Source: Lysobacterales bacterium (GTDB taxonomy: Bacteria; Pseudomonadota; Gammaproteobacteria; Xanthomonadales; SZUA-36). From it: a stretch of 64,000 nucleotides of DNA. Numbering within the stretch: position 1 is the first letter of the stretch; each line of letters starts with the position of its first letter. The translations under genes and the position numbers were made by a program. The stretch is taken from contig JABAAB010000026.1 of NCBI GenBank assembly GCA_014238945.1, positions 186,001 to 250,000 of the forward strand. The letters run 5' to 3'. The notes beneath the pieces are model-generated. The model was not told where the DNA came from, searched no databases, and worked only from the letters and a program-made list of their open reading frames with translations. This document shows, piece by piece, positions 15,698-37,947 of this stretch.

Positions 15698-17464
15698 ATG
15701 AACTCTATTAAGCCAACATCTGTCAATAAGACCCTGCCGGTTAAATTCACGGGGTATTCAAATCTTGTTGAAGCGCTTGAGTACGCAGCGCGGGGCGATA
15801 CAGGGTTTAACTTCTATGACGGTCGCGGTCGACTTTCATCCGTGCTTTCCTATACAGACCTGCGGGATCAGGCCAGGGTACTGGCCAGACGTCTGCTGAG
15901 TCTGGGTTGTGAGCATGGTGCACGGGTTGGCATCATCGCTGAAACGGAACCCATGTTTCACCGCTTCTTTTTTGCCTGCCAGTACGCCGGGTTGATTCCG
16001 GTTGCATTGCCGGCAGGTATTCAACTGGGTGCACACGGTGCTTATGTCAGCCAGGTGAGGCGCATGTTGAAAAGCTGTGGCGCATCAATCGTTGTCGCAC
16101 CCGATACCCATGCCAATTTCATGCAAGAAGCGGTACAGGGTCTGGACTTGCTGGTGGCCGGAAAACAGGAAGATTTTGATGCCCTGCCGCAGTCCGACAA
16201 AGATTTTGTAGCTTTATCTACGGACGAATCCGCCTATCTGCAATACACCTCCGGCAGCACCAGTTTTCCGCGGGGTGTCGAAGTCACGCAGAAGACCGTA
16301 TTGAATAATCTGCGGGAAATTGCCCGTTATGGACTAAAGCTCGATACCCATGACCGCTTTGTTTCCTGGCTTCCCTTTTATCATGATATGGGTCTGGTCG
16401 GATTTATCCTGGTGCCACTGATCAGCCAGTTGTCAGTTGATTACCTCGGCTCACGGACTTTTGCAATGCGTCCGCGTCTTTGGCTGAAGATTCTTTCAGA
16501 AAATGGCGGTACCATCTCCTCGGCTCCTACTTTTGGATATGCGTTGTGCGCGAAACGTTTGCGCCCTTCTGATATTGAAACCTACGATTTAAGCAAATGG
16601 CGGGCGGCCTGCGTCGGCGCAGAACGGATTAATCCGGAGCCCCTGCAGACCTTTGCAGATATTCTGCAACCCAGTGGATTTGACCGGAATGCCTTTGTTG
16701 CCTGCTATGGCATGGCGGAATGTGTGCTGGCGACCAGCTTTGCTCCACTGGGAGAAGGGTTGGGTATTGATGTCGTGGACAGACAGTTAATGGCTGACAC
16801 CGGAGAGGCACGTCCTGCCGACGGTGATGGCGCATCCGTATCGGCGTATGTTGATTGCGGCAAGTTATTGCCCGGATTTGAATTCGCGATCCTTGACAAG
16901 AATGGAAACAAGTTAAACGATCGAAATTGTGGTGAAATCCACCTCAAGGGTTCCAGTGTCATGCGTGGTTATTTCAAGGACGAGCAATCCACACGCAAAG
17001 TTCTTTCGGACGATGGCTGGCTGAATACAGGTGACATAGGGTACAGCATTGGTAATCACCTGGTGATCACCTCTCGCAGCAAAGACGTTATCATTATCAA
17101 GGGTCGCAATATCTGGCCCTACGATCTTGAAGTTCTCGCCCAGCAAACAATCGGTGTGAAACTGGGTGGCGTAGCCGCTTTCTCCATCGGTCTGGGGGCA
17201 CACGAAGAACAGGCGGTTCTGGTGGTTGAAACCAAGGAAAAAGACCAGGACAAACGACTGCACATCATAGAAGAAATTGGTAAATCCGTGCATGAACATT
17301 TTGGCATCAATGTGTTGATTGACCTGACCCCCAGGGGAACACTGCCAAGAACCTCATCCGGAAAGCTTTCGCGTTCCCAATCCAAGCAGGACTATCTGGC
17401 ACGGAAAACCCTGGAGCATGTAGAAAAATCTGCAATCAGGGTTGTTGACAAACAGCCTGCCTGA
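15698..17464 (+). CDS. Fatty acyl-AMP ligase / acyl-ACP synthetase of the sphingolipid locus
   Basis: Adenylate-forming enzyme that activates a fatty acid as acyl-AMP and probably loads it on the acyl carrier protein encoded two genes downstream. 588 residues from the ATG at 15698; a TTG 33 bases upstream is in frame but has no better ribosome site. Motifs are the P-loop YTSGSTSFPRGV near 183, GWLNTGDIGY near 440, SKDVIIIKGRNIWPYDLE near 460 and RTSSGKLSR with the catalytic lysine near 552. The overall pattern matches FAAL-type ligases rather than acetyl-CoA synthetases. Caulobacter carries a similar ligase next to its serine palmitoyltransferase. A role in supplying acyl-ACP for long-chain-base or ceramide synthesis is inferred. 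Confidence 0.85.
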   Translation: MNSIKPTSVNKTLPVKFTGYSNLVEALEYAARGDTGFNFYDGRGRLSSVLSYTDLRDQARVLARRLLSLGCEHGARVGIIAETEPMFHRFFFACQYAGLIPVALPAGIQLGAHGAYVSQVRRMLKSCGASIVVAPDTHANFMQEAVQGLDLLVAGKQEDFDALPQSDKDFVALSTDESAYLQYTSGSTSFPRGVEVTQKTVLNNLREIARYGLKLDTHDRFVSWLPFYHDMGLVGFILVPLISQLSVDYLGSRTFAMRPRLWLKILSENGGTISSAPTFGYALCAKRLRPSDIETYDLSKWRAACVGAERINPEPLQTFADILQPSGFDRNAFVACYGMAECVLATSFAPLGEGLGIDVVDRQLMADTGEARPADGDGASVSAYVDCGKLLPGFEFAILDKNGNKLNDRNCGEIHLKGSSVMRGYFKDEQSTRKVLSDDGWLNTGDIGYSIGNHLVITSRSKDVIIIKGRNIWPYDLEVLAQQTIGVKLGGVAAFSIGLGAHEEQAVLVVETKEKDQDKRLHIIEEIGKSVHEHFGINVLIDLTPRGTLPRTSSGKLSRSQSKQDYLARKTLEHVEKSAIRVVDKQPA

Positions 17465-18413
17465 TTTGCAGTTAGCCTCAGCACCGATATTCATCACCGG
17501 GTCAACCGGTTTCATAGGCCGTCATGTGGTTTCCAATTTGTTGGAAAGGGGCTGTGATGTGCGGGCAATGGTCCGTCCCGGGCAGGAAAAAGACCCACGA
17601 GTCCCTGCTCAATGCCAACAGTGTCCGGTCGATCTGACGGACGTGGAGAGCCTGAAGAAAATCGTGGCCGGGTCCAGTGCCGTCGTGTACTGTGCAGGCA
17701 GCGTTCGAGGAGGCTCACCAGCAGATTTTGCCACCGCCAACGTCAAGGGTGTCCAGGTGATGATCGAAGTGCTGGAAGGCCTCACGGATGCACCTCCATT
17801 GCTACTGATTTCCTCTCTGGCCGCGACCCGCCCCCAACTCTCCGATTACGCCCGCAGCAAGCATGATGGTGAACAAATTCTTTTCAATAGCCCCCAACTG
17901 CCATGGACCATAATACGCCCGCCTGCCGTTTATGGACCCGGTGACCGTGAAATGCTGGCGCTGTTGAAGATGGCCAGGCGTGGACTGATAGCACACACGG
18001 GGCCGGTCGATCAGCGTTTGTCATTGTTGTATGTTGAAGACCTGGCTGAAGCGGTAGTTGCGTGGTTATTCAATTGGCGTCAATGCCGGGGTCAGATCTA
18101 TGCCATCGATGACGGACGTCCCGGCGGATATAACTGGAAAGCAATAGCTGAGGCCGTGGGTCGGGGTCGCTACCGGTTATTCAGGATCCCCAGAGCGTTG
18201 CTGGAAATCACCGCAAATATAAATCTCTTTTTCTCACGGGTTATGGGTTATTCGCCCATGTTGACGCCCGGTAAAGTTCGTGAACTGGTACAGACGGAAT
18301 GGCTGGGTGATAACGCCAGTTATTCAGCTGCGACTCTATGGCAACCACGTTTTGATTTGCACCAGGGTACTCGCACAATGTTTGAACCGGGAAACCCCGG
18401 CATCTCTCCCTGA
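17442..18413 (+). CDS. NAD(P)-dependent epimerase/dehydratase family reductase, CerR-like
   Basis: Short-chain-reductase of the extended (epimerase) type, 323 residues. It has the nucleotide-binding motif TGSTGFIG near 20, the acidic-loop region VRAMVRPGQ, the catalytic YxxxK (YARSK) and RPPAVYGPGDRE. It starts at TTG 17442 inside the end of the ligase gene; an in-frame TTG at 17466 is an alternative. In Caulobacter an epimerase-family protein (CerR) beside spt reduces the ketone of the long-chain base or ceramide. The same position here, between ligase and acyl carrier protein, suggests the same step. Sugar-nucleotide epimerase activity cannot be excluded from sequence alone. Confidence 0.82.
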   Translation: MLTNSLPDLQLASAPIFITGSTGFIGRHVVSNLLERGCDVRAMVRPGQEKDPRVPAQCQQCPVDLTDVESLKKIVAGSSAVVYCAGSVRGGSPADFATANVKGVQVMIEVLEGLTDAPPLLLISSLAATRPQLSDYARSKHDGEQILFNSPQLPWTIIRPPAVYGPGDREMLALLKMARRGLIAHTGPVDQRLSLLYVEDLAEAVVAWLFNWRQCRGQIYAIDDGRPGGYNWKAIAEAVGRGRYRLFRIPRALLEITANINLFFSRVMGYSPMLTPGKVRELVQTEWLGDNASYSAATLWQPRFDLHQGTRTMFEPGNPGISP

Positions 18414-18453
18414 AATTTGAATGATTTTCACGTACTTTTAACGTATGCTGCGA

Positions 18454-18459
18454 TACAAT
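18454..18459 (+). promoter_or_regulatory. Weak -10-like element before the acyl carrier protein gene
   Basis: TACAAT (5 of 6 to consensus) lies 38 bases before the acyl carrier protein start. I find no good -35 at 16-18 bases upstream. It could be an internal promoter separating the ACP-oxoamine synthase pair from the two genes before them. Confidence 0.25.
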
Positions 18460-18496
18460 CCTACCCTTCAGAATTTCACATCCTGTGGAGGCTCGT

Positions 18497-18769
18497 TTGA
18501 ATAGCTCGACTGAATCAATTAGCGATCAGCTGGCAGAATTACTGACACAATATCTGAAACAGAATTGGGTGAAATCACCACTGAGCAATAAATTGATTAC
18601 CGCTTCGACCAATATGGTAACGGAATTGCAACTGGATTCTTTTCAGGTCATGGAGTACATGCTGGAAGTGGAAGATCATTTCGATATCACCGTCGACCTG
18701 GAGAGCCTGTCGAATATTCACACCATTGAAGACCTTGCCGGTGTGGTAGCCGCTGCTCATCAGGAATAG
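18497..18769 (+). CDS. Acyl carrier protein of the sphingolipid locus
   Basis: 90-residue acyl carrier protein. The phosphopantetheine serine is Ser48 in ELQLDSFQVMEYMLEVED, followed by the usual helix II and III (HFDITVDLESL, TIEDLAGVVAA). A GGAGG at 18487-18491 lies 5 bases before the TTG at 18497, which decides the start over the in-frame GTG at 18485 that contains part of that ribosome site. It ends 10 bases before the oxoamine synthase. A dedicated carrier protein beside serine palmitoyltransferase is known in Caulobacter and Sphingomonas-type loci, where it presents the acyl chain. It is not the housekeeping AcpP, whose motif is DSLD. Confidence 0.9.
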   Translation: MNSSTESISDQLAELLTQYLKQNWVKSPLSNKLITASTNMVTELQLDSFQVMEYMLEVEDHFDITVDLESLSNIHTIEDLAGVVAAAHQE

Positions 18770-18779
18770 GCAGAGCCCG

Positions 18780-19958
18780 ATGTCATTGCTGGACAAGTTT
18801 GCTGCGGTCAAAGAGACCAAGAATGCTTTGGGTTGTACCGGACAGGATCCGACAGCCGTCGTTTTTGACACTATTGACACCGCAACGCTGGGGACAGTGA
18901 ACGGTCGCAAGACCATCCTTGCAGGCACCAATAATTACCTGGGGCTGACGTTTGACCCAGCTTGTATCGCCGCCGGTGTTGAAGCATTGGAAACCTTTGG
19001 AAGCGGGACAACAGGCTCGCGTATGGCAAACGGCAGTTACGCTGCCCATATCGCGTTGGAAAGGGAACTGGCCGATTTTTATCAATGCCCCAACGCGGGT
19101 GTATTTTCAACGGGATATGCGGCCAATCTTGGTGTGCTCACTGCCTTGTTGGGTTCAGGTGATGTGGTTCTGTTGGATTCGGATGCACACGCAAGTCTTT
19201 ACGATGGCTGTCGTATGAGTGGCGCAGATGTGTTTCGATTCAAACATAATGATGTACAAAGTCTTGAAAAACGTCTCAAGCGTCTGGAGACCCGTGCCAA
19301 CCGCTGTTTGATTGTCACCGAGGGTATGTACAGTGTGCTGGGTGACTGCGCGCCCCTGGCCGAAATCTCAGAGTTAAAGCAGAGATTCGGTGTCTTGCTG
19401 CTGGTGGATGAAGCCCATTCACTTGGTGTATATGGTGAACATGGCCGTGGCGTGGCAGAAGCACAGGGTGTACTGGACCAGGTTGATTTTACCGTGGGCA
19501 CATTCAGTAAAAGCCTGGGGGCAATGGGTGGTTTTTGTGCCAGCCGCCATGAGGTGCTGGGTCTGTTCCGATACGTGTCCCGCCCCTTTATCTTTACTGC
19601 CTCACCCAGTCCGTCGGTAATCGCAACGACCCGTGAAGCATTGCGGCAGCTAAGATCGCGGCCTGAATTGAGAAACACATTGTGGGCCAGTGCCAGGCGG
19701 CTTTATTCCAGCTTGCAGGGTCTCGGTTATGAGTTGGGACCGGAAGTGAGCCCGGTGATAGCCGTTCGGTTCCGGGACAGGGATACGGCACTGTCCAGTT
19801 GGTATCAACTTCTCAAGTCTGGTGTATATGTGAATCTGATGCTGCCACCGGCGACCCCGGGAGGGGCCAGCTTTCTGCGTTGTAGTGTCAGCGCCGCACA
19901 TACAGATGAACAGATCAGCACGATAATCGAAAAGTTTACAGAACTGAAGGTGACCTGA
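18780..19958 (+). CDS. spt: Alpha-oxoamine synthase, serine palmitoyltransferase-like
   Basis: PLP enzyme of the family of serine palmitoyltransferase, KBL, BioF and HemA, 392 residues. It would condense serine with an acyl thioester to 3-ketosphinganine, the first step of sphingolipid synthesis. Features are NNYLGLTFDP, GSGTTGSRMANGSYAAHIALE, the Asp/His pair in LLVDEAHSLGVYG and the PLP lysine near 244 in GTFSKSLGAMGGF. There is no biotin or threonine-degradation gene nearby. The gene follows its own acyl carrier protein by 10 bases and sits behind an acyl-AMP ligase and a CerR-like reductase, so SPT is favoured over BioF or KBL by context. Substrate choice is inferred. Confidence 0.85.
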   Translation: MSLLDKFAAVKETKNALGCTGQDPTAVVFDTIDTATLGTVNGRKTILAGTNNYLGLTFDPACIAAGVEALETFGSGTTGSRMANGSYAAHIALERELADFYQCPNAGVFSTGYAANLGVLTALLGSGDVVLLDSDAHASLYDGCRMSGADVFRFKHNDVQSLEKRLKRLETRANRCLIVTEGMYSVLGDCAPLAEISELKQRFGVLLLVDEAHSLGVYGEHGRGVAEAQGVLDQVDFTVGTFSKSLGAMGGFCASRHEVLGLFRYVSRPFIFTASPSPSVIATTREALRQLRSRPELRNTLWASARRLYSSLQGLGYELGPEVSPVIAVRFRDRDTALSSWYQLLKSGVYVNLMLPPATPGGASFLRCSVSAAHTDEQISTIIEKFTELKVT

Positions 19959-19964
19959 GTCATT

Positions 19965-21263
19965 TCAGGTGCTGCCAGGATCCCCAGGGGTTAATCTGAC
20001 CAGCCTGAGCATCAGCAGCAAGGTTAAAAACGAAGCAACAATGGCAGCAATACCCGGCCCGGTCAGACCCAGACCCGGTGTCAGAAAATAAAACAGACCA
20101 AAATAAACCATCACACCGAGTATATGAATACGAAGTGTGCTTGATACCCGGCCCATGGCGTAGGCTGCGGCACGCAGTGGTGAGCCGGCAAGTTCAAAAG
20201 TCGCTGCCAGTAACATTAAGGTCACCAATGTGGATGCACGCGTGTATTCTTCACCAATAATACCCAGCACCGGCCCGGCAGTCGGTATTGATACCATCAC
20301 CAGCACGAGTCCCGTCAGGCCAGCCAGCCGAACCGCACGGTACCCCAATTCGTGAAAGCCCTCGGATCCGGTATGCAAAATGCGGGTCAGGTCTGGAAAC
20401 AGCACCTCACGTAACATCATGGCGGGTTTGCTCAGTATGGTGGAGAAATCGCGTGCCAGTCGAAACATACCGGCGGCAGCCGGGCCGAGCAATCCACCGG
20501 CGAGCAAAACAGCCAGGTGTTTAGGAAGCAGGTCCACATTGGTCTGCCAGTAAACAACCGCAATAAAGTGCCGGAACTCCCTGCTGGTCTGGCGAATTTC
20601 CCGCCATTGAAACCCTTGCCAGATTGACCCGCCAAGGTGAACACGTAATTCTTTGTGCCCGCGTATGAACAGCCAGCTGTTTTCCACCAAAAATGCTACT
20701 GCCCAAATAGAAATAAACACGTACATATGCGCATCACGCATCCAGGCAATGGCGACCAATACAACCCTGACGAGGGGCCCGACGGTATACCAGACACTGA
20801 GGGCATCAAATCGATCATAGAGTCGTAATATTCCGTTGGGTGTGCCAATTGCAGTGGTCAGCATGACCAGGGCATACAAAGTCGCCAGAGAAACCATCTG
20901 GTCGTCCCAGTGCAGGAATCCGCCAGCCACTGAAGCGGCGGAAACCCCCACCAGCGTGGCCGCAGCACTGGCCGTAAAATCAATTATGCTGGTGCTACGG
21001 AAAAGACGTTTTAGCCCCTGATCATCATTGCTTTCATGCAGTGGAACACCAAACCGTACTACGGCTTCAAAAGTTCTGAAGTTCAGAGCTCCCCGTACAG
21101 CCAATACGTAGGTGTGCAAAAGGATAACCAGTCCGAATTCAGAGGCAGACAGGGAATTGGCCATCAGTGCCGTTGCAGTGAGGGTAAACAGGGCTGCGAT
21201 GCCGCGTCCCCTGAGAACGACACCAAAATTCTTCAGAACCCGTCCTGAGACACCTTCCTGCAT
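19965..21263 (-). CDS. MOP-superfamily (polysaccharide-type) lipid flippase
   Basis: Multi-pass inner-membrane protein of about 432 residues with 12-14 predicted membrane segments, of the polysaccharide-synthesis/Wzx-MurJ clan (early RGRGIAALFTLTATALMANS, late GRVSSTLRIHILGVMVYFG). The start is the ATG at 21263, which overlaps the stop of the preceding gene as TAATG, so the two are translationally coupled; a longer in-frame start exists at 21308. It is third in the leftward unit phosphotransferase - Tam41-like - flippase and convergent with the oxoamine synthase. Its cargo may be the headgroup-bearing lipid made by its neighbours. That is inference from position. Confidence 0.82.
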   Translation of the reverse strand: MQEGVSGRVLKNFGVVLRGRGIAALFTLTATALMANSLSASEFGLVILLHTYVLAVRGALNFRTFEAVVRFGVPLHESNDDQGLKRLFRSTSIIDFTASAAATLVGVSAASVAGGFLHWDDQMVSLATLYALVMLTTAIGTPNGILRLYDRFDALSVWYTVGPLVRVVLVAIAWMRDAHMYVFISIWAVAFLVENSWLFIRGHKELRVHLGGSIWQGFQWREIRQTSREFRHFIAVVYWQTNVDLLPKHLAVLLAGGLLGPAAAGMFRLARDFSTILSKPAMMLREVLFPDLTRILHTGSEGFHELGYRAVRLAGLTGLVLVMVSIPTAGPVLGIIGEEYTRASTLVTLMLLAATFELAGSPLRAAAYAMGRVSSTLRIHILGVMVYFGLFYFLTPGLGLTGPGIAAIVASFLTLLLMLRLVRLTPGDPGST

Positions 21264-22234
21264 TAGCGAAATGCCCCTCTGCGATATAGCTGCCACAACA
21301 ACGGCCACGCAAATATCAGGGGATGCCTGAGTTGTCGTGGTGTGGGTTCGATGTATTGCCCTGAGTGTCGTTCAATCTTCCATAAAATGTAGGCCAGAGG
21401 CTCGTTGAAAGTAAAAGCCGCCTTGAATAATCGCAATACCGATAACAGCTTGCCCTGAATTCGTCTCAATCCCCAACCCAATCCGGATAATTTCCTGGAA
21501 CGGATGCTGCAGTTATTCCGGAACACGTCGTTAGTGTGTGCAACTTCAAATTGCTTCAGGTCCTGGGCCAGTGCGGTGGTTAGTTCGGCATAGTAATCCG
21601 GGGCAAAATCATAAAGGGAATCAGCACGATTACCGCTCTCTGTGCGGAGTTCGCAGCGGTAGGTCATTGCGAGTCCCTGGGTCCACAGTTCCCTGCTGTC
21701 AAACCGGTCCTGGATTGCGGGTAGTACCCGTCTGGTAAAGCTCAGGGCAGCGCGACTGAAGGATTCGACCAGTGTTGCTTGCACTTGGTCATTTTTCGCA
21801 TAAATTATTTCGCAGGGTTGCGCAAACCGCGCCCAGAAATAGGAGTGAAAATCATGTTTCATGGCGTGTTTGAATCTGTCCAGGGTCAGGACCGCATATT
21901 TCGCCCGAAGATCATCACTTTCTGGGTCACTCTCATTGGACCTGCAATGAATATGGTAGACGTTGGGTGGCAATAGAGCGCATAGCCACCGCTGCCAGGC
22001 GCTATCAAGTGTTTGGTAATCTTCTACCAGAACATAGAAATCCAGCATGGTATCCCGTTTACCCCTAAGCCATGACCCGTATACCAGCACAGCCAGTAAT
22101 GAAGCCTGGTGCTCTTTGCAGATTTGATTCAACAACGGTGCCAGCACCGCATCATCGCGCCAATCTTGACTTGACCGGGCCTGCCCCTCGATGCGACGTC
22201 TGGTCAATCGGCGGGTTTCATCGCTACCCCGCAT
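21263..22234 (-). CDS. Tam41/MMP37-like nucleotidyltransferase (candidate CDP-lipid synthase)
   Basis: About 323 residues with no signal peptide. The segment VLVYGSWLRGKR (51-60) followed by DTMLDFYVLVED resembles the nucleotidyltransferase core of Tam41, the mitochondrial CDP-diacylglycerol synthase, including the characteristic MLDF. A later stretch LRAKYAVLTLDRFKHAMK matches the Tam41 pattern of KYGVVS.x.L near the second half. The start is probably the ATG at 22234, preceded by a run of six G; an in-frame ATG lies at 22276. It overlaps the phosphatidyltransferase gene upstream and is coupled to the flippase gene downstream. I infer that it activates a lipid phosphate (ceramide phosphate or phosphatidate) with CTP. 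The remote homology was read by eye. Confidence 0.62.
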   Translation of the reverse strand: MRGSDETRRLTRRRIEGQARSSQDWRDDAVLAPLLNQICKEHQASLLAVLVYGSWLRGKRDTMLDFYVLVEDYQTLDSAWQRWLCALLPPNVYHIHCRSNESDPESDDLRAKYAVLTLDRFKHAMKHDFHSYFWARFAQPCEIIYAKNDQVQATLVESFSRAALSFTRRVLPAIQDRFDSRELWTQGLAMTYRCELRTESGNRADSLYDFAPDYYAELTTALAQDLKQFEVAHTNDVFRNNCSIRSRKLSGLGWGLRRIQGKLLSVLRLFKAAFTFNEPLAYILWKIERHSGQYIEPTPRQLRHPLIFAWPLLWQLYRRGAFR

Positions 22235-23444
22235 AGGCCCCCCGCGTTGCTCCGAAAATGGAGAAGGAGCGGGCATGCGGACCGGTGGCGACGTCCGGTT
22301 CGCCCAGCCATGATGACAATGGTCCCCGGCTAACCCTTACCATGACGGCATAAAGCAACCGCAGTACCAGAACAATGGTGGTAAAGGCAGTCCAGAATAC
22401 AACGGCAATGAAGCCCCAGTCCGGTCTTGAAATAAACAAGGCGAGGGTCAATAAAATCAGGTTGGGATTGCGTCTGGCTGTGACCAGCCTGAACCAGGCA
22501 TCGAATGGACGCCAGGTGAAAATACCGCAGTCACCGAGAAATGGAAATACGCCTTCCACTACTCTGCCAACAACATAGCCGGCTATGATGAGCCAGTACA
22601 TTTGTTCCTGATGGACACCCGCTACCGTTTGCAGACCGGTCAGCGACATACCCCAGTAGATATACCAGAAGGGTGGATGAAACAGGTCAATGCCGTGGTC
22701 GAACAAGTGACCGAATTTACTGGACTGGACGGTGACCCGCGCCAGTTTTCCGTCAACCGTGTCGAGGAATGTCATCAGCCATCCTGCCAGCAACCCCCAT
22801 CCATAATGGCCCTCGTAGAACAGGTAGCAGGCTGCAATTACCAATCCCAACCCTGCGCTGGTAACCATATTTGGGGATATCCCCAGGCCGGCACACAGAT
22901 GTACGACGCGTTTGGCGGGTTTTGGCCACAGAAACTTGGTTACCAGGTCGGTAATGCCCCGATAGGCGTTGCCGTATAACTTGTTTTCAAGTTCTGTCTT
23001 GCGTTTTTCTCCGATGTACTCAAGCAGTGCTGTGGATGATCTGCGAAGATTTTCATCAAAAGTTTGCAGATCCCGGGTTTCCAGCACGCCCGGTCCCGCA
23101 GGAAGATCCTGACGTTTACCCAGCATTTGGTCCAGCACCTGTCTTGATTGGTTCGAATTGCCCAGGTTCGCCGCCGCAACCAGTTCATTGTCGTATGCCA
23201 GGATGGATTCGGGGTGTTCCAGCACGGCTTTCAGGGTGTCGTTGTCGAACAGGAACAATCCATTTATTAACAGGACAGGGCTGTTTTCCGGTAACTCTCC
23301 CAGGTCATTCAGCCAGTGTATTTTGCCGAATTGAGAGGAAGATTCCTTGCCAATCTCTTTCAATTGACGTTTGAGTCTTTGCCTTGAGTTGAGACCCCAC
23401 AATATTACGGGAGATATTTCAGAGACAAGTGCGTAGATGGTCAT
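22224..23444 (-). CDS. CDP-alcohol phosphatidyltransferase with an extra N-terminal domain
   Basis: Integral membrane enzyme of about 406 residues. The C-terminal half carries a perfect CDP-alcohol phosphatidyltransferase signature, D228-x2-D-G-x2-A-R-x8-G-x3-D-x3-D253, with about six membrane segments. The first 180 residues are soluble and resemble a worn nucleotidyltransferase domain without a GxGxR loop, recalling the fused inositol-phosphate cytidylyltransferase/DIPP synthase layout. The ATG at 23444 is preferred to one at 23591, because the longer form would overlap the divergent phosphoesterase start and leave no promoter. It probably attaches the phospho-headgroup to the lipid. The alcohol (inositol, glycerol or other) is unknown. 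Confidence 0.83.
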   Translation of the reverse strand: MTIYALVSEISPVILWGLNSRQRLKRQLKEIGKESSSQFGKIHWLNDLGELPENSPVLLINGLFLFDNDTLKAVLEHPESILAYDNELVAAANLGNSNQSRQVLDQMLGKRQDLPAGPGVLETRDLQTFDENLRRSSTALLEYIGEKRKTELENKLYGNAYRGITDLVTKFLWPKPAKRVVHLCAGLGISPNMVTSAGLGLVIAACYLFYEGHYGWGLLAGWLMTFLDTVDGKLARVTVQSSKFGHLFDHGIDLFHPPFWYIYWGMSLTGLQTVAGVHQEQMYWLIIAGYVVGRVVEGVFPFLGDCGIFTWRPFDAWFRLVTARRNPNLILLTLALFISRPDWGFIAVVFWTAFTTIVLVLRLLYAVMVRVSRGPLSSWLGEPDVATGPHARSFSIFGATRGAYAG

Positions 23445-23576
23445 GATATATTGCGACTCGGGACAATGAATGGAAAGGGCGTCTGACGATTGATCAAACT
23501 CATGAAAGCATGGATTATAGACAGTGCGAGAGTGACCGGCAAAGGATTGGTCGCATACAGGGATTGCTGAGTTAGT

Positions 23577-24476: not shown

Positions 24477-24477
24477 G

Positions 24478-25551
24478 CTACAGTATGCGGTGCCGTAACG
24501 CTGCAATGGCAATGGCGAGTAACAGGAAAGGTGGGATCATGATAGGTAAAGATGGGTTGACACCCAGGATTCCCGCCAGGTGACCACTCAGTTGCTGGAC
24601 CAGGTAAAAACCAATTCCAATCAATCCACCGATCATGATTCGTTGGCTGGCTGATACCGATCTGACGGAGCCCAGCAAGAAGGGCAGCGATAACAGTGAC
24701 ATTGCCAGTAAGCCGGGCAGCAGGCTGACCTGCTGCCAAAGCACGATTTCATAGTTGTGGGTATCCAGGTTATTTTGCTTCAGATTGACAATGGTATTGA
24801 TCAAATCATGAGGTGCCAGCGCCTCAAGGGGTAACATCAGAACCGCGGCCTGGTCTGCCGACAACAGACCAGGCCAAAGCATACGTTCCTCTTTTACCTC
24901 ATATACTTGCGTGTTTTGCAGATCACTCTGCAACACGTCTCGAAGCAGCCAGTTGTCCTGGCCGGCATAGTCGGCACGCGATGCTTGTATCAACTGGGTA
25001 AGTCTGCCTTGCTCATCGGTGGTATAAATCTCGACATTGGCCAGAGTACGGTCAAACAGCACTTCGTCAACGTGAATGAAATAAGCGCCATTGCGGGTCC
25101 ACAAGGCGCCCGAATCAGCCACTCCCGAGCCCATTTCCCGGATCGACTTACCACGCAGATGAACTGCTTCACGTTCAAACCCCGGTACAACTGAAAATTG
25201 CAAGGCAGTAATGAATATTCCCAGGAAAATGGCCAACACGGTCACGGTCTGCGCAATGCGTTGCTTGGAAAGACCGGAGGTACGGATGGCGATCAATTCG
25301 CGGTTATTGGCCATGGCACCCAAACCCAGAAGCCCGCCCAGCAGAGCTGTTACTGGAAGCAGCTCCACGATCCGTTTGGGTGTGGTCAGGAACACCACCA
25401 TCAAAGCATCCGGCAGGGTGAAGTCACCCTTTCCGACCTCTTCCAGTTCTTCCGCCAGACTCAGGAAACTGAACAGGGCAAGCAACAGGAGCATTACAGG
25501 TACAATGCCTGCGAGAAACCTCTGCATGATATAGCGATCAATTCGCAGCAC
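24478..25551 (-). CDS. lptG: LptG-type permease of a lipid export ABC system
   Basis: YjgP/YjgQ-family inner-membrane permease, 357 residues. Three N-terminal membrane segments (IMQRFLAGIVPVMLLLLALF, RIVELLPVTALLGGLLGLG, AQTVTVLAIFLGIFITALQF), a periplasmic jelly-roll of about 170 residues and three C-terminal segments are seen. In the known system LptF and LptG pair with ATPase LptB and pass lipopolysaccharide to LptC. The start overlaps the end of lptF by 14 bp. Unusually, the pair is embedded among lipid-synthesis genes and not next to pepA. Either it is the only LptFG copy of this organism or a paralogue serving sphingolipid; the window cannot decide. Confidence 0.88.
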   Translation of the reverse strand: MLRIDRYIMQRFLAGIVPVMLLLLALFSFLSLAEELEEVGKGDFTLPDALMVVFLTTPKRIVELLPVTALLGGLLGLGAMANNRELIAIRTSGLSKQRIAQTVTVLAIFLGIFITALQFSVVPGFEREAVHLRGKSIREMGSGVADSGALWTRNGAYFIHVDEVLFDRTLANVEIYTTDEQGRLTQLIQASRADYAGQDNWLLRDVLQSDLQNTQVYEVKEERMLWPGLLSADQAAVLMLPLEALAPHDLINTIVNLKQNNLDTHNYEIVLWQQVSLLPGLLAMSLLSLPFLLGSVRSVSASQRIMIGGLIGIGFYLVQQLSGHLAGILGVNPSLPIMIPPFLLLAIAIAALRHRIL

Positions 25552-26611
25552 GGTGCTTTCTCACTTTTCTACGTCTACTGGGGAGATACAGTCCGGCTAC
25601 AAGCAGAGCAAGGGCACCCGGTACCCACCATATGAAACTCAAGCTGCCCTGTTCCACCCAGCTGCGGCTTACGTCCAACAAGTTGAAATAGATGGCATAA
25701 ATGCCGACCGCCAATAGCATCTTGGCATAGCGACCCTGCCGTGGGCGGCTGCGACTCAGCGGGATCGCAGCCAGAGCCAGCAACAAAGCAGAAATTGGAG
25801 TGGACATACGCCACTGAAATTCAGCACGGTCCGGGGCTTCGGAAGAGAGTATCAGTTCGATTGTGGTGGCCGACTTAACCTTGTAACCCGGAGGCTTCGG
25901 TTTCTGCGCCTGTAACCACATTGTGAACGTTCCAAAGTGAGCGGAAAAATCACTGCCATTCTGGACTTTTTTAAAAACTTTTGCGTCATTCAATTGCAGG
26001 CGATGAAGTCCGGGCTTGGCAAAATAACTGAAAACACCACTGGACGCTGTGATTACCTGCAGATCGGCCCCTTTCCGGGTGCGGATGAAAATACCACTCA
26101 GGTCACTGCCATTTTCACCAATATCTTCAATAAATACGGTCCGGTTGTTTCCCTCAAAGGTGTAAAACCTTGCTGCCCTGATCCGGCCGGTTTCCGCGGA
26201 CGCCTCGGCCGCCGCCTTGATTTCAAAAGATTGTGCATAGGCCCATGGCCTCACCCATACCGACAGTAAAGTAACAGCGACAGCCAATACCATGGTCAGC
26301 CGCATCAGAGGCCTCAGCAGCCGCGTTTCAGATATTCCACCAGCTCGCATTGCGTAGACTTCTGAATCGGCATATAGCCGGCCAAGACCCGTCATGACCG
26401 CCAGGTACAGGCTCAGAGGCAGCAATACATCGAGGGAGATGATGGATTTGAGCAGGGTCAACCGGGCGACCTCACCGGGCTGCAAAAGACCTGCATCGGC
26501 ATCCACCAGCAAACGGCTGAGGCTGAATGTAATGAAGATCACCAACAGAGCAACAAGGATCGCCGCAAATGGCTGCACGACTTCCCGGATCATGTAACGG
26601 TCAATAATCAT
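25538..26611 (-). CDS. lptF: LptF-type permease of a lipid export ABC system
   Basis: YjgP/YjgQ-family permease, 357 residues from the ATG at 26611 (MIIDRYMIREVVQPFAAIL, the usual LptF beginning). A longer in-frame form to 26662 adds 17 residues without family support. Topology is as in LptG, with a periplasmic beta-rich middle (ARFYTFEGNNRTVFIEDIGE) between two sets of three membrane segments. It is first of the lptF-lptG pair and divergent from the OstA-type gene at 26730 across 118 bp, so the three export genes may share a control region. Confidence 0.88.
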   Translation of the reverse strand: MIIDRYMIREVVQPFAAILVALLVIFITFSLSRLLVDADAGLLQPGEVARLTLLKSIISLDVLLPLSLYLAVMTGLGRLYADSEVYAMRAGGISETRLLRPLMRLTMVLAVAVTLLSVWVRPWAYAQSFEIKAAAEASAETGRIRAARFYTFEGNNRTVFIEDIGENGSDLSGIFIRTRKGADLQVITASSGVFSYFAKPGLHRLQLNDAKVFKKVQNGSDFSAHFGTFTMWLQAQKPKPPGYKVKSATTIELILSSEAPDRAEFQWRMSTPISALLLALAAIPLSRSRPRQGRYAKMLLAVGIYAIYFNLLDVSRSWVEQGSLSFIWWVPGALALLVAGLYLPSRRRKVRKHRAAN

Positions 26612-26729
26612 GATTGAGATAATGATTGAAAAATGGGTGAGGTCTTGTCCTTGCCATGGCAATACTTGCTATGATCAATCAGTTCGTTTGCGATTTCCAC
26701 TATCATGGCAATGAATATCTCAACCTACT

Positions 26730-27254
26730 ATGAGAATTAGAAAAGACATTATTTCACAAAGTGCGGTTCATGCAGGCGTCTTGTTGATATTCGCCATGTT
26801 GCCTTTGCCCTGTTTGTCATCTCCACTGGGAGAGGACGCTTTTGACACCATCAGCATCAGTGCCGATGAGGCCAGGGAAGACGAGGAGTCTGCAATTTTA
26901 TATTTCAACGGCCATTTTGTGATGCTGAGCTCAGAATGGCGCTTGACGTCTGAGCAGGCAACGGTTTATGGACGTCTTGATACACCGGAAAAGGTGAGTC
27001 TGCAGGGCACACCGGCACGCTTCAGTATCAGCAAATCGGATGATCATCTGTGGGGGCCGGTAGAGGCCAGTGCGCCGATCGTGGAGTATCTGCGTTCCGC
27101 CAATACACTGAGTCTGTCCGGTGGGGCAATTCTCAAGTTGGGTGACGAGGTAATCAGGAGTAAAACCATTGAATTTGATATCACCACTGACCAGTACAGG
27201 GCCAGTGGCACTGGTGGTGTATTGATTGAGGTTCCAGTCCTGAAAATCCGTTGA
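26730..27254 (+). CDS. OstA/LptA-like periplasmic protein of the lipid locus
   Basis: 174 residues. A hydrophobic signal peptide (AGVLLIFAMLPLPCLSS) ends near residue 30. The rest is a run of beta-strands with the OstA pattern: ISADEAREDEESAILYFNGHFVML, LTSEQATVYG, VSLQGTPARF, NTLSLSGGAILKLGDEVIRSKTIEFDITTDQYRASG. This is the fold of LptA and LptC, which form the lipopolysaccharide bridge across the periplasm. The canonical lptC and lptA are at 37.9-39.1 kb, so this is an extra bridge-type protein. A TATGAT -10-like element lies about 55 bases before the ATG. It is divergent from lptF, which suggests that it works with that permease. Confidence 0.78.
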   Translation: MRIRKDIISQSAVHAGVLLIFAMLPLPCLSSPLGEDAFDTISISADEAREDEESAILYFNGHFVMLSSEWRLTSEQATVYGRLDTPEKVSLQGTPARFSISKSDDHLWGPVEASAPIVEYLRSANTLSLSGGAILKLGDEVIRSKTIEFDITTDQYRASGTGGVLIEVPVLKIR

Positions 27255-27299
27255 ATGACCGCTTGACGGTGCCCGGGTGTATTGAAGTGTACCGCCGGA

Positions 27300-28025
27300 T
27301 TATGACCACAGGGCTACAATATCTGCGGCCGCAGCGAAATCCGACGCGTCATCCACCTCACACCAACTCAGACCATTGATGGGGCAAATGCCGACTATAC
27401 CCGTACTGGCGAGCTGGTCAATTGCTGAAAGGTACCACAATTTCAGGGCGTCCTTTTTGTCCATCATTTCTTCGAGTTTCTGTGTAAAGGCATTTGCACC
27501 ATCCTGGTTAAACACCATCATTCCTATGCTTTCGCCATTGACCAGGTGAATATCCAATTGCTTGCTGACCTTTAACAAGCGGTCACCATCTGCGATGATT
27601 TTCATATCATCCAGATCAAAATTGGCCTTGGTGTCGGTGGCAAGCGTTATCGGATATTCATTTTCGCTTTTGAGCAAACGTTGCAGTATGGCGGCCTCAA
27701 AGAGTGTGTCACCATTCATCAATACAAAGGGACCCGTCATTTCAAACCGTGCCTCCCAACAGGTCCCCAGGTTGTCGGTATGGGCATACATTGGGTTGTG
27801 CAGCGTTTCGACCGGCACATTACTGACCCGCTCAACTATTGAGTCAACCTGCTCGCTGGCGAATCCGGTGACGACCACCACCTCATCAATATCGCATAGC
27901 GCAATTTGATTCAATTGCCACTCGAGTATCGAAGTGCCGTGCAACGGCAGACAGCATTTGGCCATATTTGAAGTCAATGGCATCAGCCGGCGCCCCTGTC
28001 CTGCGCTTAGTATGATTACTTTCAA
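27300..28025 (-). CDS. LicC-like NTP:sugar/alcohol-phosphate nucleotidyltransferase
   Basis: 241-residue cytoplasmic nucleotidyltransferase. It starts with the loop MKVIILSAGQGRRLMPLT, has KCCLPLHGTSILEWQL, the metal-binding FVLMNGDTLFE and a late GLSWCEVDDASDF. The size and motifs fit CTP:phosphocholine or CTP:alcohol-phosphate cytidylyltransferases better than the larger glucose-1-phosphate enzymes. In this locus it may activate the headgroup alcohol phosphate for the phosphatidyltransferase at 22.2-23.4 kb. The nucleotide (CTP or UTP) and the substrate cannot be read from the sequence. It is convergent with the OstA-like gene and divergent from the GMC oxidoreductase. Confidence 0.78.
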   Translation of the reverse strand: MKVIILSAGQGRRLMPLTSNMAKCCLPLHGTSILEWQLNQIALCDIDEVVVVTGFASEQVDSIVERVSNVPVETLHNPMYAHTDNLGTCWEARFEMTGPFVLMNGDTLFEAAILQRLLKSENEYPITLATDTKANFDLDDMKIIADGDRLLKVSKQLDIHLVNGESIGMMVFNQDGANAFTQKLEEMMDKKDALKLWYLSAIDQLASTGIVGICPINGLSWCEVDDASDFAAAADIVALWS

Positions 28026-28091
28026 TCGAAATTCCTCTGATTTGGGTATGGGAGTCTGCTGAAAAGTGGTGCATTAAAACATGAATCAGTC

Positions 28092-28110
28092 ATTCTGCAA
28101 AATGCAGAAT
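28092..28110. promoter_or_regulatory. Perfect 8-3-8 palindrome between the nucleotidyltransferase and GMC genes
   Basis: ATTCTGCA-AAA-TGCAGAAT is a perfect inverted repeat in the divergent gap, followed at 28114-28119 by the -10-like TACAAT that would serve the GMC oxidoreductase gene. The position fits an operator that could control one or both divergent genes. The regulator is unknown; none is encoded in the locus. Confidence 0.5.
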
Positions 28111-28209
28111 TGATACAATGTCTGCTGTGACATCCAATTGGTTTCTCGCGTCTTCTACCCTGGTCCCCCCCAGGTTTGCACGCAGGGTAACAGACTACGG
28201 ATTAAGAAT

Positions 28210-29817
28210 ATGTTAATCGACCTTGAAAAAGCCTCATCTGACCTGGTGCTGGAAAGTGAAGTTTGTATTGTGGGAGGCGGTGCGGCTGGAGTTGCGCTGG
28301 CGCGAAACATGATGAAAACAGGGCGTGATGTTTGTCTGCTGGAAGGCGGGGGAATGGATTATGAGGATGAAACCCAGTCGTTGTTTGATGGCAGAAATGT
28401 CGGTATGGAATATTACGACCTGGATCACGCAAGACTGAGATTTTTTGGTGGAACGACCAATATCTGGGGCGGCCGCTGTGTTCCGCTGGACCGGATTGAC
28501 TTCGAGAAAAGAGACTGGGTACCACACAGTGGCTGGCCCATAACACTTGATGAGCTCATGCCTTACTACCGTTTCGCACATGACTCATTACAACTGGGGG
28601 CATTTGATTACGAGACAGATATTTGGGATCAATTGCAGATTTCGCCCATTGATTTTGACCGTGAGGAAATGACCACCCGGTTTTGGCGTTTTGATGCCCT
28701 TGCAGAACGATTCAACAGTCGCAGGAGTGATGATCTGATACAGGCGCAAAATATTCGGCTTGTGATACATGCAAATGTGGTCAACCTGCAGGCATCGGGC
28801 AATGCAGGCAACATAACCAGTCTGGAAGCCAGAACGTTACACGGCAGGAGGCTTCAGGTCACGGCACAGCACTTTGTGCTGGCCTGTGGTGCGATCGAAA
28901 ATGCCCGTTTGTTGCTGGCATCAAACAGCGTAGAGCAGGACGGGATTGGCAATCAATTTGACCAGGTAGGTCGCTATTTTATGGAGCATCCGCACGGTAG
29001 GATTGCACAGATTGAAACCGATGATCCTGCCATGTTCTGGGCGCTGTACCGCAAACGATACCCTGCAGGGGATGTCCCACTTGCACCCGCTCTGGTACTG
29101 CCCGAGTCACAGCAACGCCGTCTGGGAATACTGAACAGCGCAGCAACGTTCAAACTGCAAAAAGACCCGAGTAGGGGCGCCACCATCAGCAAACGGGTTT
29201 ACCTGAACCTGAAACACAGCCTGTCACCATCTCGTTCCGGTCGTGCGCTATGGCAAACCTGGCGCGGCATGCAGGATTGGTTGCAGGGTCACATTTCAAT
29301 GCCCCTGCTACGGTTTGGCGTCAAGATGAACCGTATGGGCCTGTATGTGATCGCCAGGGCCGAGCAAGCTCCCAACCCCGATAGCAGAGTGCGTCTTTCA
29401 GAGCAAAGGGACAAACTCGGTAACCACAGGGCGGATCTGGACTGGCAGCTGTGTGCACTGGACAAGGAAACCATGCTGCAATTCGGTAAAGCATTGCAAC
29501 GGGAATTTGCCCGACTGGGTTTGGGGAAAGTATCAACATACCAGTGGCTGGAGGATGGTCGACCCGAATGGCCGGTCGATGCCAGCGTGGGTAACCATCC
29601 CATCGGTGGTTATCATCATATGGGGACAACACGCATGAGTGATTCTGCCCGCACGGGTGTTGTCGACTCAAATTGCACCGTTCACGGCTATCACAATCTT
29701 CACATTGCGAGCAGTTCGGTTTTCACCACCGGTGGTTGGGCGAATCCGACATTGACCATATTGGCATTGACCCACAGATTGGGAGATCATCTGAATCGCT
29801 TACTGGATAAACATTAA
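28210..29817 (+). CDS. GMC-family FAD oxidoreductase
   Basis: FAD-dependent alcohol or sugar oxidoreductase of about 535 residues. The dinucleotide motif GGGAAG lies at 22-27, followed by the E-rich CLLEGGG; GGTTNIWGGRC is the usual FAD-covering segment, and the active-site region HHMGTTRMS lies near 469. The final GWANPTLTILALTHRLGDHL is typical of the family. The ATG at 28210 precedes the FAD-binding fold closely; a TTG 72 bases upstream is in frame but would lie next to the promoter elements. Within a lipid locus it could oxidise a polyol headgroup, for example an alcohol to an acid. That is speculation. Its stop overlaps the next, convergent gene by 4 bases. Confidence 0.85.
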   Translation: MLIDLEKASSDLVLESEVCIVGGGAAGVALARNMMKTGRDVCLLEGGGMDYEDETQSLFDGRNVGMEYYDLDHARLRFFGGTTNIWGGRCVPLDRIDFEKRDWVPHSGWPITLDELMPYYRFAHDSLQLGAFDYETDIWDQLQISPIDFDREEMTTRFWRFDALAERFNSRRSDDLIQAQNIRLVIHANVVNLQASGNAGNITSLEARTLHGRRLQVTAQHFVLACGAIENARLLLASNSVEQDGIGNQFDQVGRYFMEHPHGRIAQIETDDPAMFWALYRKRYPAGDVPLAPALVLPESQQRRLGILNSAATFKLQKDPSRGATISKRVYLNLKHSLSPSRSGRALWQTWRGMQDWLQGHISMPLLRFGVKMNRMGLYVIARAEQAPNPDSRVRLSEQRDKLGNHRADLDWQLCALDKETMLQFGKALQREFARLGLGKVSTYQWLEDGRPEWPVDASVGNHPIGGYHHMGTTRMSDSARTGVVDSNCTVHGYHNLHIASSSVFTTGGWANPTLTILALTHRLGDHLNRLLDKH

Positions 29818-30620: not shown

Positions 30621-30654
30621 CTGATCGTTACCCGGGATGCTTGGGAAATATATA

Positions 30655-31836
30655 TCACAAGTACTTTTCGTACATGCGGTAGCGTTTGGTTACCTCGCCA
30701 CCAATGCTTTCGATAATATTCCTGACCGCATGATTGTGTTGCAATATCCACGACATTTCGGCCCGTTCCAGTCCACGTTGGGTGCCGGCGTCCATGGCGG
30801 CCTTGATGACCAGGTAAGCGAGCGCGGGGCCGAACCGGGTGTTTTGATATTTCTGTCTTACACCCATCAAAGCGACCCTGGCCGTCTTGGGGAATTTCAC
30901 TTTTAGCCGCCACAGCAATTTCGCCCAGCCAAAGGGCAGCAAGCGGCCATTGAGGTCCGATATTGCCTCGTTGATATTGGGAATCAGGACATTAAAGGCG
31001 ACGGCTTCACCATCAAGTTCGGCAATATGGATAAAATCGGCGGGCAGCAGCATCAACAACTCTTTGCCAACCGCGCTGAATTCCTCACGTGTGAAAGGCA
31101 CAAAATTCCAGTTGTTTTCCCAGGCATCGTTGAAGATATCCCGCATGGTTTCAAGTTCTTCTTCCCTTTTGCTCTTATTCAGACAACGCACATTGACCCG
31201 CTTTCCACTTCTACGGATCAGGGCCTGCATGATCCTGGGTATGGTCAGCGTATTATTGTCCATTTCATAGGCTAAAAGGTCCTGTGCACCCTGGTATCCA
31301 CACCGCTCTATCGCTGCGCCATAATAAGGTGGGGAATGACCCATCATGACAAATGGGGGGGAGTCAAATCCATCAACGAGAACGCCGATTTCCTGGTTGA
31401 TGCCCAGATTAAATGGCCCCGCAACCTGTCGCATGCCCTGTTCCCGCAACCAGTTCTCGGCGGCCTCAAACAGTAACTGGAATACGTTGTCATCATCGGG
31501 AGCTTCGATCAGACCAAAAAAACCGGTCTTGTTCTGATAACGCTGCTGGTGCAGTTCATCAATCTGGGCAGATATGCGACCTACGGGACTTCCATCCTGG
31601 TAAGCAATCCACGCCCGCCATTGAGCGTGTTTGAAATACGGGTGCCTGGGTGAGAATGCTTCTTTGCGTTCAGCGATCAATGGGGGAACCCAGTTCCGGT
31701 CATCTCGGTAAATACTCCAGGGCACCCGAATAAAAGTGTCAAGCAACTGTTTACTGGTGACTTCTTTTATCTGAATATCTTTGTAGACTTGGTCATTCAT
31801 AGATATGGACTTGATATTGATTGATGTTGGTGCCAT
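30655..31836 (-). CDS. GNAT-fold acyltransferase, candidate bacterial ceramide synthase (bCerS-like)
   Basis: 393-residue cytoplasmic protein with no signal peptide. The N-terminal half (FIRVPWSIYRDDRNWVPPLI, AFVAYQDG-like AWIAYQDGSPVGRISAQID) and the C-terminal GNAT-type half ending in AEMSWILQHNHAVRNIIES define a long, conserved GNAT-like family. Caulobacter ceramide synthase belongs to the acyl-CoA N-acyltransferase clan and lies in a locus of similar content, so this is the best candidate for the N-acylation step. An AGGAGG 9 bases before the ATG at 31836 supports that start. The ribosome site is itself inside a palindrome. The substrate is inferred from context. Confidence 0.7.
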   Translation of the reverse strand: MAPTSINIKSISMNDQVYKDIQIKEVTSKQLLDTFIRVPWSIYRDDRNWVPPLIAERKEAFSPRHPYFKHAQWRAWIAYQDGSPVGRISAQIDELHQQRYQNKTGFFGLIEAPDDDNVFQLLFEAAENWLREQGMRQVAGPFNLGINQEIGVLVDGFDSPPFVMMGHSPPYYGAAIERCGYQGAQDLLAYEMDNNTLTIPRIMQALIRRSGKRVNVRCLNKSKREEELETMRDIFNDAWENNWNFVPFTREEFSAVGKELLMLLPADFIHIAELDGEAVAFNVLIPNINEAISDLNGRLLPFGWAKLLWRLKVKFPKTARVALMGVRQKYQNTRFGPALAYLVIKAAMDAGTQRGLERAEMSWILQHNHAVRNIIESIGGEVTKRYRMYEKYL

Positions 31837-37946: not shown

Positions 37947-37947
37947 T

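What the first reader, a model, noticed from the sequence alone, without database searches (positions are those of the whole stretch)
15698..31836. Putative complete phosphosphingolipid biosynthesis and export locus in a Gammaproteobacterium
Seen: acyl-AMP ligase, CerR-like reductase, acyl carrier protein and serine-palmitoyltransferase-type enzyme in one unit (15.7-20.0 kb), and a GNAT-type protein that fits bacterial ceramide synthase at 30.7-31.8 kb. Between them are a Tam41-like enzyme, a CDP-alcohol phosphatidyltransferase, two nucleotidyltransferases, a GMC oxidoreductase, a metallophosphoesterase, a flippase and LptF/LptG/OstA-type export genes. Known: Caulobacter makes ceramide with spt, cerR and bcerS from a comparable locus. 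Inference: this organism makes an acidic phosphosphingolipid and sends it to the outer membrane. Sphingolipids are known mainly from Alphaproteobacteria, Bacteroidetes and Myxobacteria, so a gammaproteobacterial set with its own transport genes would be notable.
Basis: partly seen in the sequence, partly recalled or inferred. Interest (0 to 1): 0.88.

Follow-up and report, generated by a model that had tools for sequence, protein, structure and literature searches.

The report
Gammaproteobacterial phosphosphingolipid locus lacking ceramide kinase
A stretch of 15 genes in a gammaproteobacterium encodes a near-complete set for making acidic sphingolipids and moving them to the outer membrane, much like Caulobacter's, except that the dedicated ceramide kinase is missing, probably because an ordinary lipid kinase does that job.

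The parts
15665..17464 (+). AasR: acyl-ACP (acyl-AMP) ligase that loads fatty acid on AcpR
   Evidence: PRK09192 697.8 bits over cut-off 600; 42% identical to the E. coli cluster enzyme, 50% to the Diaphorobacter plasmid enzyme
17442..18413 (+). CerR: SDR-type 3-oxo-sphinganine/ceramide reductase
   Evidence: Epimerase E 7.5e-24; 38% identical to E. coli cluster SDR, 34% to Roseomonas
18485..18769 (+). AcpR: specialised acyl carrier protein
   Evidence: PP-binding E 2.4e-07; weak similarity to six cluster ACPs; position directly before spt
18780..19958 (+). Spt: serine palmitoyltransferase
   Evidence: NF047599 588.6 bits, cut-off 500; PDB SPT 2x8u E 6e-124 vs KBL 1fc4 3e-66; K244, H137, D210, H213, R367 align with Sphingomonas SPT K265, H159, D231, H234, R390 (positions recalled as catalytic); R378 is not conserved
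19965..21308 (-). Polysaccharide-exporter (MOP) type putative sphingolipid flippase
   Evidence: Polysacc_synt E 2.6e-07; 25-28% identical to flippase-like proteins in the E. coli, Rahnella and Roseomonas sphingolipid clusters, E 4e-32 to 1e-27
21263..22276 (-). CpgC: Tam41-fold CTP-dependent cytidylyltransferase (counterpart of CC_1161)
22224..23591 (-). CpgA: CDP-alcohol phosphatidyltransferase (counterpart of CC_1159); true start probably near residue 50
   Evidence: CDP-OH_P_transf E 3.4e-10; 37-40% identical to Roseomonas and Diaphorobacter cluster proteins; motif residues invariant in 9 rows
23577..24476 (+). Metallophosphoesterase (counterpart of CC_1158); facultative: not found in the same-genus clusters of G003 and G007
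   Evidence: Metallophos E 1.4e-18; 38% identical to the Roseomonas cluster protein
24478..25551 (-). LptG2: second LptG-type permease
   Evidence: TIGR04408 298.8 bits, cut-off 240; extra to the pair at G000:C37:77569-79709
25538..26662 (-). LptF2: second LptF-type permease
   Evidence: TIGR04407 308.8 bits, cut-off 230
26730..27254 (+). LptA/OstA-like periplasmic bridge protein (LptA2)
   Evidence: LptD_N E 3e-06, TIGR03002 50.7 bits, below its cut-off 71.7; canonical LptA is at 37948-38547
27300..28025 (-). CpgD: CTP:phosphoglycerate cytidylyltransferase (counterpart of CC_1152/CCNA_01210)
   Evidence: 44% identical to Roseomonas and Diaphorobacter cluster proteins; matches PDB phosphocholine cytidylyltransferase 1jyk and 4jd0, which PMC12275187 names as inositol-phosphate cytidylyltransferase
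28138..29817 (+). GMC-family FAD oxidoreductase, extra to the Caulobacter set as described in PMC11324152; role unknown
   Evidence: GMC_oxred_C E 5e-23; also in seven relatives (L013-L016, L021, L023, L155) and, outside the family, L055, L057, L082, L154
29814..30620 (-). CC_1153-like nucleotidyltransferase
   Evidence: NTP_transf_3 E 3e-07; 36-37% identical to Roseomonas and Pseudomonas plasmid cluster proteins
30655..31836 (-). bCerS: GNAT-type bacterial ceramide synthase
   Evidence: Acetyltransf_1 E 3.1e-07; 51% identical to E. coli YghO, 44% to the Roseomonas cluster protein, over residues 21-393

Best explanation
The locus makes an acidic phosphosphingolipid of the ceramide-phosphoglycerate (CPG/CPG2) type and exports it. 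Inferred steps: AasR loads a fatty acid on AcpR; Spt condenses it with serine; bCerS N-acylates and CerR reduces (order disputed in print), giving dihydroceramide. Ceramide is phosphorylated to ceramide-1-phosphate by a kinase encoded elsewhere, most likely housekeeping DgkA, since the dedicated kinase CpgB has been lost. CpgC, a Tam41-fold cytidylyltransferase, activates it with CTP; CpgD makes CDP-glycerate; CpgA (CDP-alcohol phosphotransferase), the CC_1153-like nucleotidyltransferase and the phosphoesterase complete one or two phosphoglycerate units. The GMC oxidoreductase adds an unknown oxidation. The flippase turns the lipid over and LptF2/LptG2/LptA2, probably sharing canonical LptB and the LptDE port, move it to the outer membrane. 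Shown here: gene content, homology, predicted CpgC fold, conservation, absence of CpgB by two profile searches. Everything chemical is inferred.
For: Spt over its curated cut-off and nearest to solved SPTs. Counterparts of bCerS, AasR, CerR, CpgC, CpgA, CpgD, CC_1153 and the phosphoesterase in Roseomonas and other clusters. Predicted CpgC fold = Tam41. SPT-bearing genomes have three or more LptF/G genes above cut-off (13 of 13) and SPT-less ones two (12 of 12). CpgB profile: 187-483 bits in eleven genomes (six of them gave rows to the profile, five did not), at most 42 bits over a third of the profile in the 18 family genomes with CpgC. Slot: CpgD-GMC-CpgB-NTP2-bCerS in L154 and the same with AspH before CpgB in L055; CpgD-GMC-NTP2-bCerS in the window family. 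DgkA in 23 of 25 CpgC-bearing, CpgB-less genomes; E. coli DAG kinase is the reagent of the ceramide assay (PMC4291487 passage; that this enzyme is DgkA is recalled); Rahnella's sphingolipid plasmid has a DgkA gene next to its acyltransferase gene.
Against: DgkA is also in 5 of 5 family members without CpgC that were tested and in 7 of 11 CpgB-bearing genomes, so its presence permits but does not show the role; it was not found in G001 (88% complete) and G008 (77%). Caulobacter's own sequences could not be fetched; orthology rests on a Roseomonas plasmid cluster and the paper's gene list. No lipid data. No LptC-type protein was found among the cluster proteins. The headgroup may differ: GMC is unexplained.
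Confidence: 0.7

Rival explanations
1. Kinase-free route: CpgA moves phosphoglycerate from CDP-glycerate straight onto ceramide, so no ceramide-1-phosphate is needed and CpgB became dispensable.
For: The CpgB label changes two to three times on the CpgC tree while CpgA and CpgD stay in the window family; five CpgC-bearing genomes outside the family have no DAGK_cat kinase at all (G057, G058, G059, G062, G064; completeness not known).
Against: CpgC, whose fold relative Tam41 acts on a phosphorylated lipid (recalled), is kept in 10 of 10 genomes of the genus; in Caulobacter CPG still forms without CC_1159 and CC_1152 (PMC11324152 section 8); all five genomes have DgkA.
Confidence: 0.15
2. A YegS/BmrU-type lipid kinase (region of G000:C64:108346-108726) supplies ceramide-1-phosphate.
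For: Present in the window genome (TIGR00147 170.3 bits, cut-off 118.65); a DAGK_cat match in 12 of 18 family genomes with CpgC.
Against: No association: 15 of 21 CpgC-less members also have a match; absent from G043 (95% complete) and from five CpgC-bearing genomes outside the family. PMC10331486 (passage) places YegS in a clade apart from CpgB.
Confidence: 0.15
3. The headgroup is not phosphoglycerate but another phospho-alcohol, with GMC and the nucleotidyltransferases making or oxidising it.
For: GMC oxidoreductase is a conserved extra; in G014 a sulfotransferase-like ORF sits in its place; CpgD is close to choline-P and inositol-P cytidylyltransferases.
Against: CpgD, CpgA, CpgC and CC_1153 counterparts occur together as in CPG2 loci.
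Confidence: 0.25
4. The oxoamine synthase is BioF/KBL and the cluster serves LPS or another lipid.
For: Distant similarity of all alpha-oxoamine synthases.
Against: SPT models and structures score far higher; ACP, FAAL, SDR and bCerS partners; another LptF/LptG pair and canonical lptB/A/C exist separately.
Confidence: 0.02

Closest known systems
Caulobacter crescentus CPG2 locus CC_1152-CC_1168 (PMC11324152, PMC12275187)
   Same: By description: five ceramide genes, CpgC, CpgA, CC_1158-like phosphoesterase, CpgD, CC_1153-like enzyme, second LptF/LptG, flippase
   Different: No CpgB kinase; extra GMC oxidoreductase; LptA-like protein where LptC2 is reported; different gene order. Compared through the paper's text and a Roseomonas stand-in, not through Caulobacter sequences
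Azotobacter vinelandii / Pseudomonas luteola clusters (PMC11324152 section 9)
   Same: Contiguous gammaproteobacterial ceramide/CPG2/transport cluster
   Different: Reported to lack CC_1168, CC_1167, CC_1166 (flippase) and CC_1158 counterparts; flippase and phosphoesterase are present here. CC_1160 is not listed as missing there
Roseomonas haemaphysalidis plasmid p546-2 cluster (L028)
   Same: Similar proteins for 13 of the 15 window genes
   Different: No GMC or OstA counterpart; keeps CpgB between CpgC and CpgA
E. coli yghO-spt cluster (L024)
   Same: Five ceramide genes, LptF/LptG pair, flippase
   Different: No CpgC, CpgA, CpgD or CC_1153 counterparts in the 20.7-kb stretch; has YtfJ-family, yghS/yghT and hypothetical genes

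Membership tests
Serine palmitoyltransferase (NF047599) | Score over the curated cut-off | tested here: met
   588.6 vs 500 bits
Serine palmitoyltransferase (NF047599) | PLP lysine and active-site residues (positions recalled from S. paucimobilis SPT) | tested here: met
   K244, H137, D210, H213, R367; the R378 counterpart is L355, a leucine in E. coli Spt too
Caulobacter-type CPG2 locus | aasR, cerR, acpR, spt, bcerS | tested here: met
Caulobacter-type CPG2 locus | CpgC (CC_1161), CDP-DAG-synthase-like | tested here: met
Caulobacter-type CPG2 locus | CpgB ceramide kinase (CC_1160) | tested here: not met
   Absent from locus and genome: best match 31.7 bits over 108 of 334 positions vs 187-483 bits in eleven positive genomes, six of which gave rows to the profile
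Caulobacter-type CPG2 locus | CpgA, CpgD and CC_1153 counterparts | tested here: met
   motif
Caulobacter-type CPG2 locus | Second LptF/LptG and flippase | tested here: met
Caulobacter-type CPG2 locus | LptC2 (CC_1168) | tested here: inconclusive
   No LptC hit among the cluster proteins; an LptA-like protein is there; CC_1168 sequence not available
Caulobacter-type CPG2 locus | CPG/CPG2 in lipid extracts | not testable with these tools
   needs mass spectrometry
Tam41 (PF09139) | Profile score over cut-off | tested here: not met
   No hit for the window protein at E up to 1; 4 of 12 CpgC rows match, best E 0.0018. The fold matches: it looks like a distant relative, not a Pfam member
CpgB-clade ceramide kinase as the genome's DAGK | Falls with CpgB rather than YegS/BmrU | tested here: not met
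   TIGR00147 170.3 bits for the C64 kinase vs 19-26 bits for three cluster CpgBs

The most novel reading that the evidence does not exclude
A branch of gammaproteobacterial phosphosphingolipid loci has repeatedly discarded its ceramide kinase and makes the anionic headgroup without any dedicated ceramide kinase: either the phospholipid-recycling kinase DgkA has been drawn into sphingolipid synthesis, or phosphoglycerate is transferred to ceramide directly, with a GMC oxidoreductase tailoring a headgroup not yet described.
Probability: 0.5. Interest if true: 0.5.

Novelty: new variant of a known kind. Interest (0 to 1): 0.38.

Why it matters
In Caulobacter, survival without LPS depends partly on CPG2 (PMC12275187 abstract), which is also the presumed polymyxin target (PMC11324152 section 13). 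A family that keeps the other headgroup genes but not the kinase isolates an open step: who makes ceramide-1-phosphate, and whether CpgC really needs it. The predicted Tam41 fold of CpgC gives a direct, testable activity (CTP plus ceramide-1-phosphate to CDP-ceramide); PMC11324152 section 13 already speculated on an NDP-activated ceramide, and PMC13228409 (passage) still calls the mechanism unidentified. The link of extra LptF/G genes with spt supports a dedicated sphingolipid transporter, a step reported as unidentified in PMC11087976 (passage).

Tried and rejected
BioF/KBL reading of Spt: rejected. Kinase hidden in the locus: tblastn (E up to 1) of two CpgB proteins against the window and eleven relative loci gave nothing; the unassigned ORF of comparison loci turned out to resemble OlsC/LpxO acyl hydroxylases (one of seven, L068, scanned; below both cut-offs). 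YegS/BmrU kinase as a dedicated replacement: no association. A mutual exclusion of OstA and CpgB suggested (0 of 13 OstA loci with CpgB in view) fails, because L154 has both. CpgC tree labels: 3 changes, 2 forced, 4 of 31 rows unlabelled, root and direction not established by the tree; in the script duplicates of genomes already held were left out, seven loci. A DgkA/CpgB trade-off is weak: 23 of 25 against 7 of 11, with related genomes not independent. Searching PF09139 in the genome rang nowhere, controls included, so it says nothing. Foldseek 'pdb' could not be run; the VIA-align list is a second look at Foldseek's matches only. Literature: the listings and the parts of papers that I opened show no CPG locus without ceramide kinase, but none of these searches asked for that alone and the library lacks most subscription papers.
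Full report
What is there. The window holds 15 open reading frames between 15665 and 31836. Pfam and NCBIfam scans give, in order: fatty acyl-AMP ligase, SDR/epimerase, acyl carrier protein, serine palmitoyltransferase (+ strand); MOP-type flippase, a protein without a family, CDP-alcohol phosphatidyltransferase (- strand); metallophosphoesterase (+); LptG, LptF (-); LptA/OstA-like (+); NTP transferase (-); GMC oxidoreductase (+); NTP transferase and GNAT (-). The neighbours look ordinary: a beta-lactamase-family protein and a LysE transporter before it, and proteins of the MgtE, RapZ, PtsN, S30AE, sigma-54, ABC ATPase, LptA, LptC, HAD hydrolase and SIS/CBS families after it, which fit mgtE-rapZ-ptsN-hpf-rpoN-lptB-lptA-lptC-kdsC-kdsD (some of these gene names are recalled).

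Ceramide genes. Spt scores 588.6 bits against NF047599 (cut-off 500) and stays below the cut-offs of the other two SPT models and of the BioF and KBL models. The best solved structures are SPTs of the Sphingomonas kind (E 6e-124; the organism is recalled), against 3e-66 for KBL 1fc4. The recalled catalytic residues align except one arginine that E. coli Spt also lacks. The GNAT protein is 51% identical to E. coli YghO and 42-50% to four other cluster acyltransferases; AasR and CerR counterparts are 42-50% and 33-39% identical.

Transport. In 25 genomes compared, all 13 with a cluster-type SPT (E below 1e-100) have three or more LptF/LptG matches above the family cut-off, ten of them exactly four, and all 12 without it have two (the counts 3, 5 and 6 of G011, G008 and G006 include contig-edge pieces or a further pair). 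The second pair therefore goes with the sphingolipid genes. The LptA-like protein is a further paralogue; no LptB or LptC was found among the 15.

Conservation. CpgC is found in 18 of 39 held genomes of the family: all 10 of the genus, 4 of 5 of genus g7, 3 of 3 of g6 and the one g3 genome. The order aasR-cerR-acpR-spt / flippase-cpgC-cpgA / phosphoesterase / lptG2-lptF2 / ostA / cpgD / GMC / NTP2 / bcerS recurs whole in L015, L016 and L021; no phosphoesterase was found in L013 and L014; L023 starts inside spt; other loci are cut by contig ends. In G014 (L020) a sulfotransferase-like ORF sits where GMC is elsewhere and no bCerS was seen, while its genus-mate G024 keeps both (L155). G020 has Spt but no CpgC match.

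The missing kinase. In Caulobacter CpgB makes ceramide-1-phosphate (PMC10331486, passages). No kinase lies in the window locus or was seen in its relatives' loci. A profile of ten cluster CpgBs finds matches of 187-483 bits in eleven genomes (six of these gave rows to the profile; G055, G056, G063, G075 and G076 did not), but in the 18 CpgC-bearing family genomes the best match is 42 bits over about a third of the profile, and six have none. The window genome's main DAGK_cat kinase is of the YegS/BmrU kind (170.3 bits, cut-off 118.65), while three cluster CpgBs score 19-26 bits on that model. A second DAGK_cat match at G000:C33 has stops in frame and was not followed further. In sister lineages the order is CpgD-GMC-CpgB-NTP2-bCerS (L154) or CpgD-GMC-AspH-CpgB-NTP2-bCerS (L055); in the window GMC is on the other strand and abuts NTP2 (29817/29814), so CpgB appears to have gone from a defined slot. 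On a CpgC tree of 31 rows the kinase label needs 3 changes, 2 forced by well-supported branches; losses are the simpler reading, as kinase-bearing L049, L055 and L057 lie inside the same supported clade, but the tree does not fix the direction.

Who phosphorylates ceramide. DAGK_cat kinases show no link with CpgC in the family (12 of 18 with, 15 of 21 without), and G043 (95% complete) and five CpgC-bearing genomes outside the family have none (completeness of those five is not known). DgkA (PF01219) is present in 23 of 25 CpgC-bearing, CpgB-less genomes, the window's included, and in 7 of 11 CpgB-bearing ones; the control search did not ring in Caulobacter vibrioides. It is also in 5 of 5 tested family members without CpgC, so it is a housekeeping gene and its presence is permissive evidence only. 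Ceramide has been measured with E. coli diacylglycerol kinase, with ceramide 1-phosphate as the product (PMC4291487, passage), and ceramide and dihydroceramide by 'the diacylglycerol kinase assay' (PMC3113798, passages, enzyme source not seen); that the E. coli reagent is DgkA is recalled. Rahnella's sphingolipid plasmid carries a DgkA gene beside its acyltransferase gene. DgkA is thus the best candidate, not a shown one.

Known and new. A gammaproteobacterial cluster with transport genes is in print (PMC11324152 section 9), and a blastn match to spt is found in 4056 of 5426 complete E. coli genomes (10 rows seen). In the listings and parts that I saw (and the papers opened) I did not find a CPG-type locus that has lost its ceramide kinase, the GMC and LptA-like additions, or a structure-based assignment of CpgC beyond the InterPro hint in PMC11324152.

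Noticed in passing
L020 13869-14825: In G014 a sulfotransferase-like ORF takes the place of the GMC oxidoreductase and no bCerS was seen in the 20 kb, hinting at a different headgroup; genus-mate G024 keeps GMC and bCerS (L155).
   Followed up: partly
L055, L061, L063, L068, L082, L085, L112: These gammaproteobacterial or proteobacterial clusters carry a protein next to the CC_1153-like gene that resembles OlsC/LpxO acyl 2-hydroxylases (only the L068 protein was scanned against NCBIfam, below the cut-offs): a possible ceramide acyl hydroxylase.
   Followed up: partly
L027 and L139 (Diaphorobacter plasmid pDCB2): A plasmid typed as conjugative IncP carries a sphingolipid cluster with two CDP-alcohol transferases, a fatty acid desaturase, a CpgB-like kinase and mercury resistance genes.
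   Followed up: no
L025 10751-11110: Rahnella plasmid: a DgkA gene beside the ceramide synthase gene in a sphingolipid cluster in which no CpgC, CpgA or CpgD was found.
   Followed up: partly
window 37227-40605: Genes of the canonical lptB, lptA, lptC and kdsC/kdsD kind begin about 5 kb after the end of the locus; in L014 the ORF after bCerS (832 aa) does not look like the window's mgtE.
   Followed up: no
G020:C37:9573-10730 (L022): A family member with aasR, cerR, acpR and spt but no CpgC match in a 90% complete genome.
   Followed up: no
L016 10758-12077: The cpgA frame that my script delimited in relative G002 contains an in-frame stop; wrong start, assembly error or pseudogene not resolved.
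   Followed up: no
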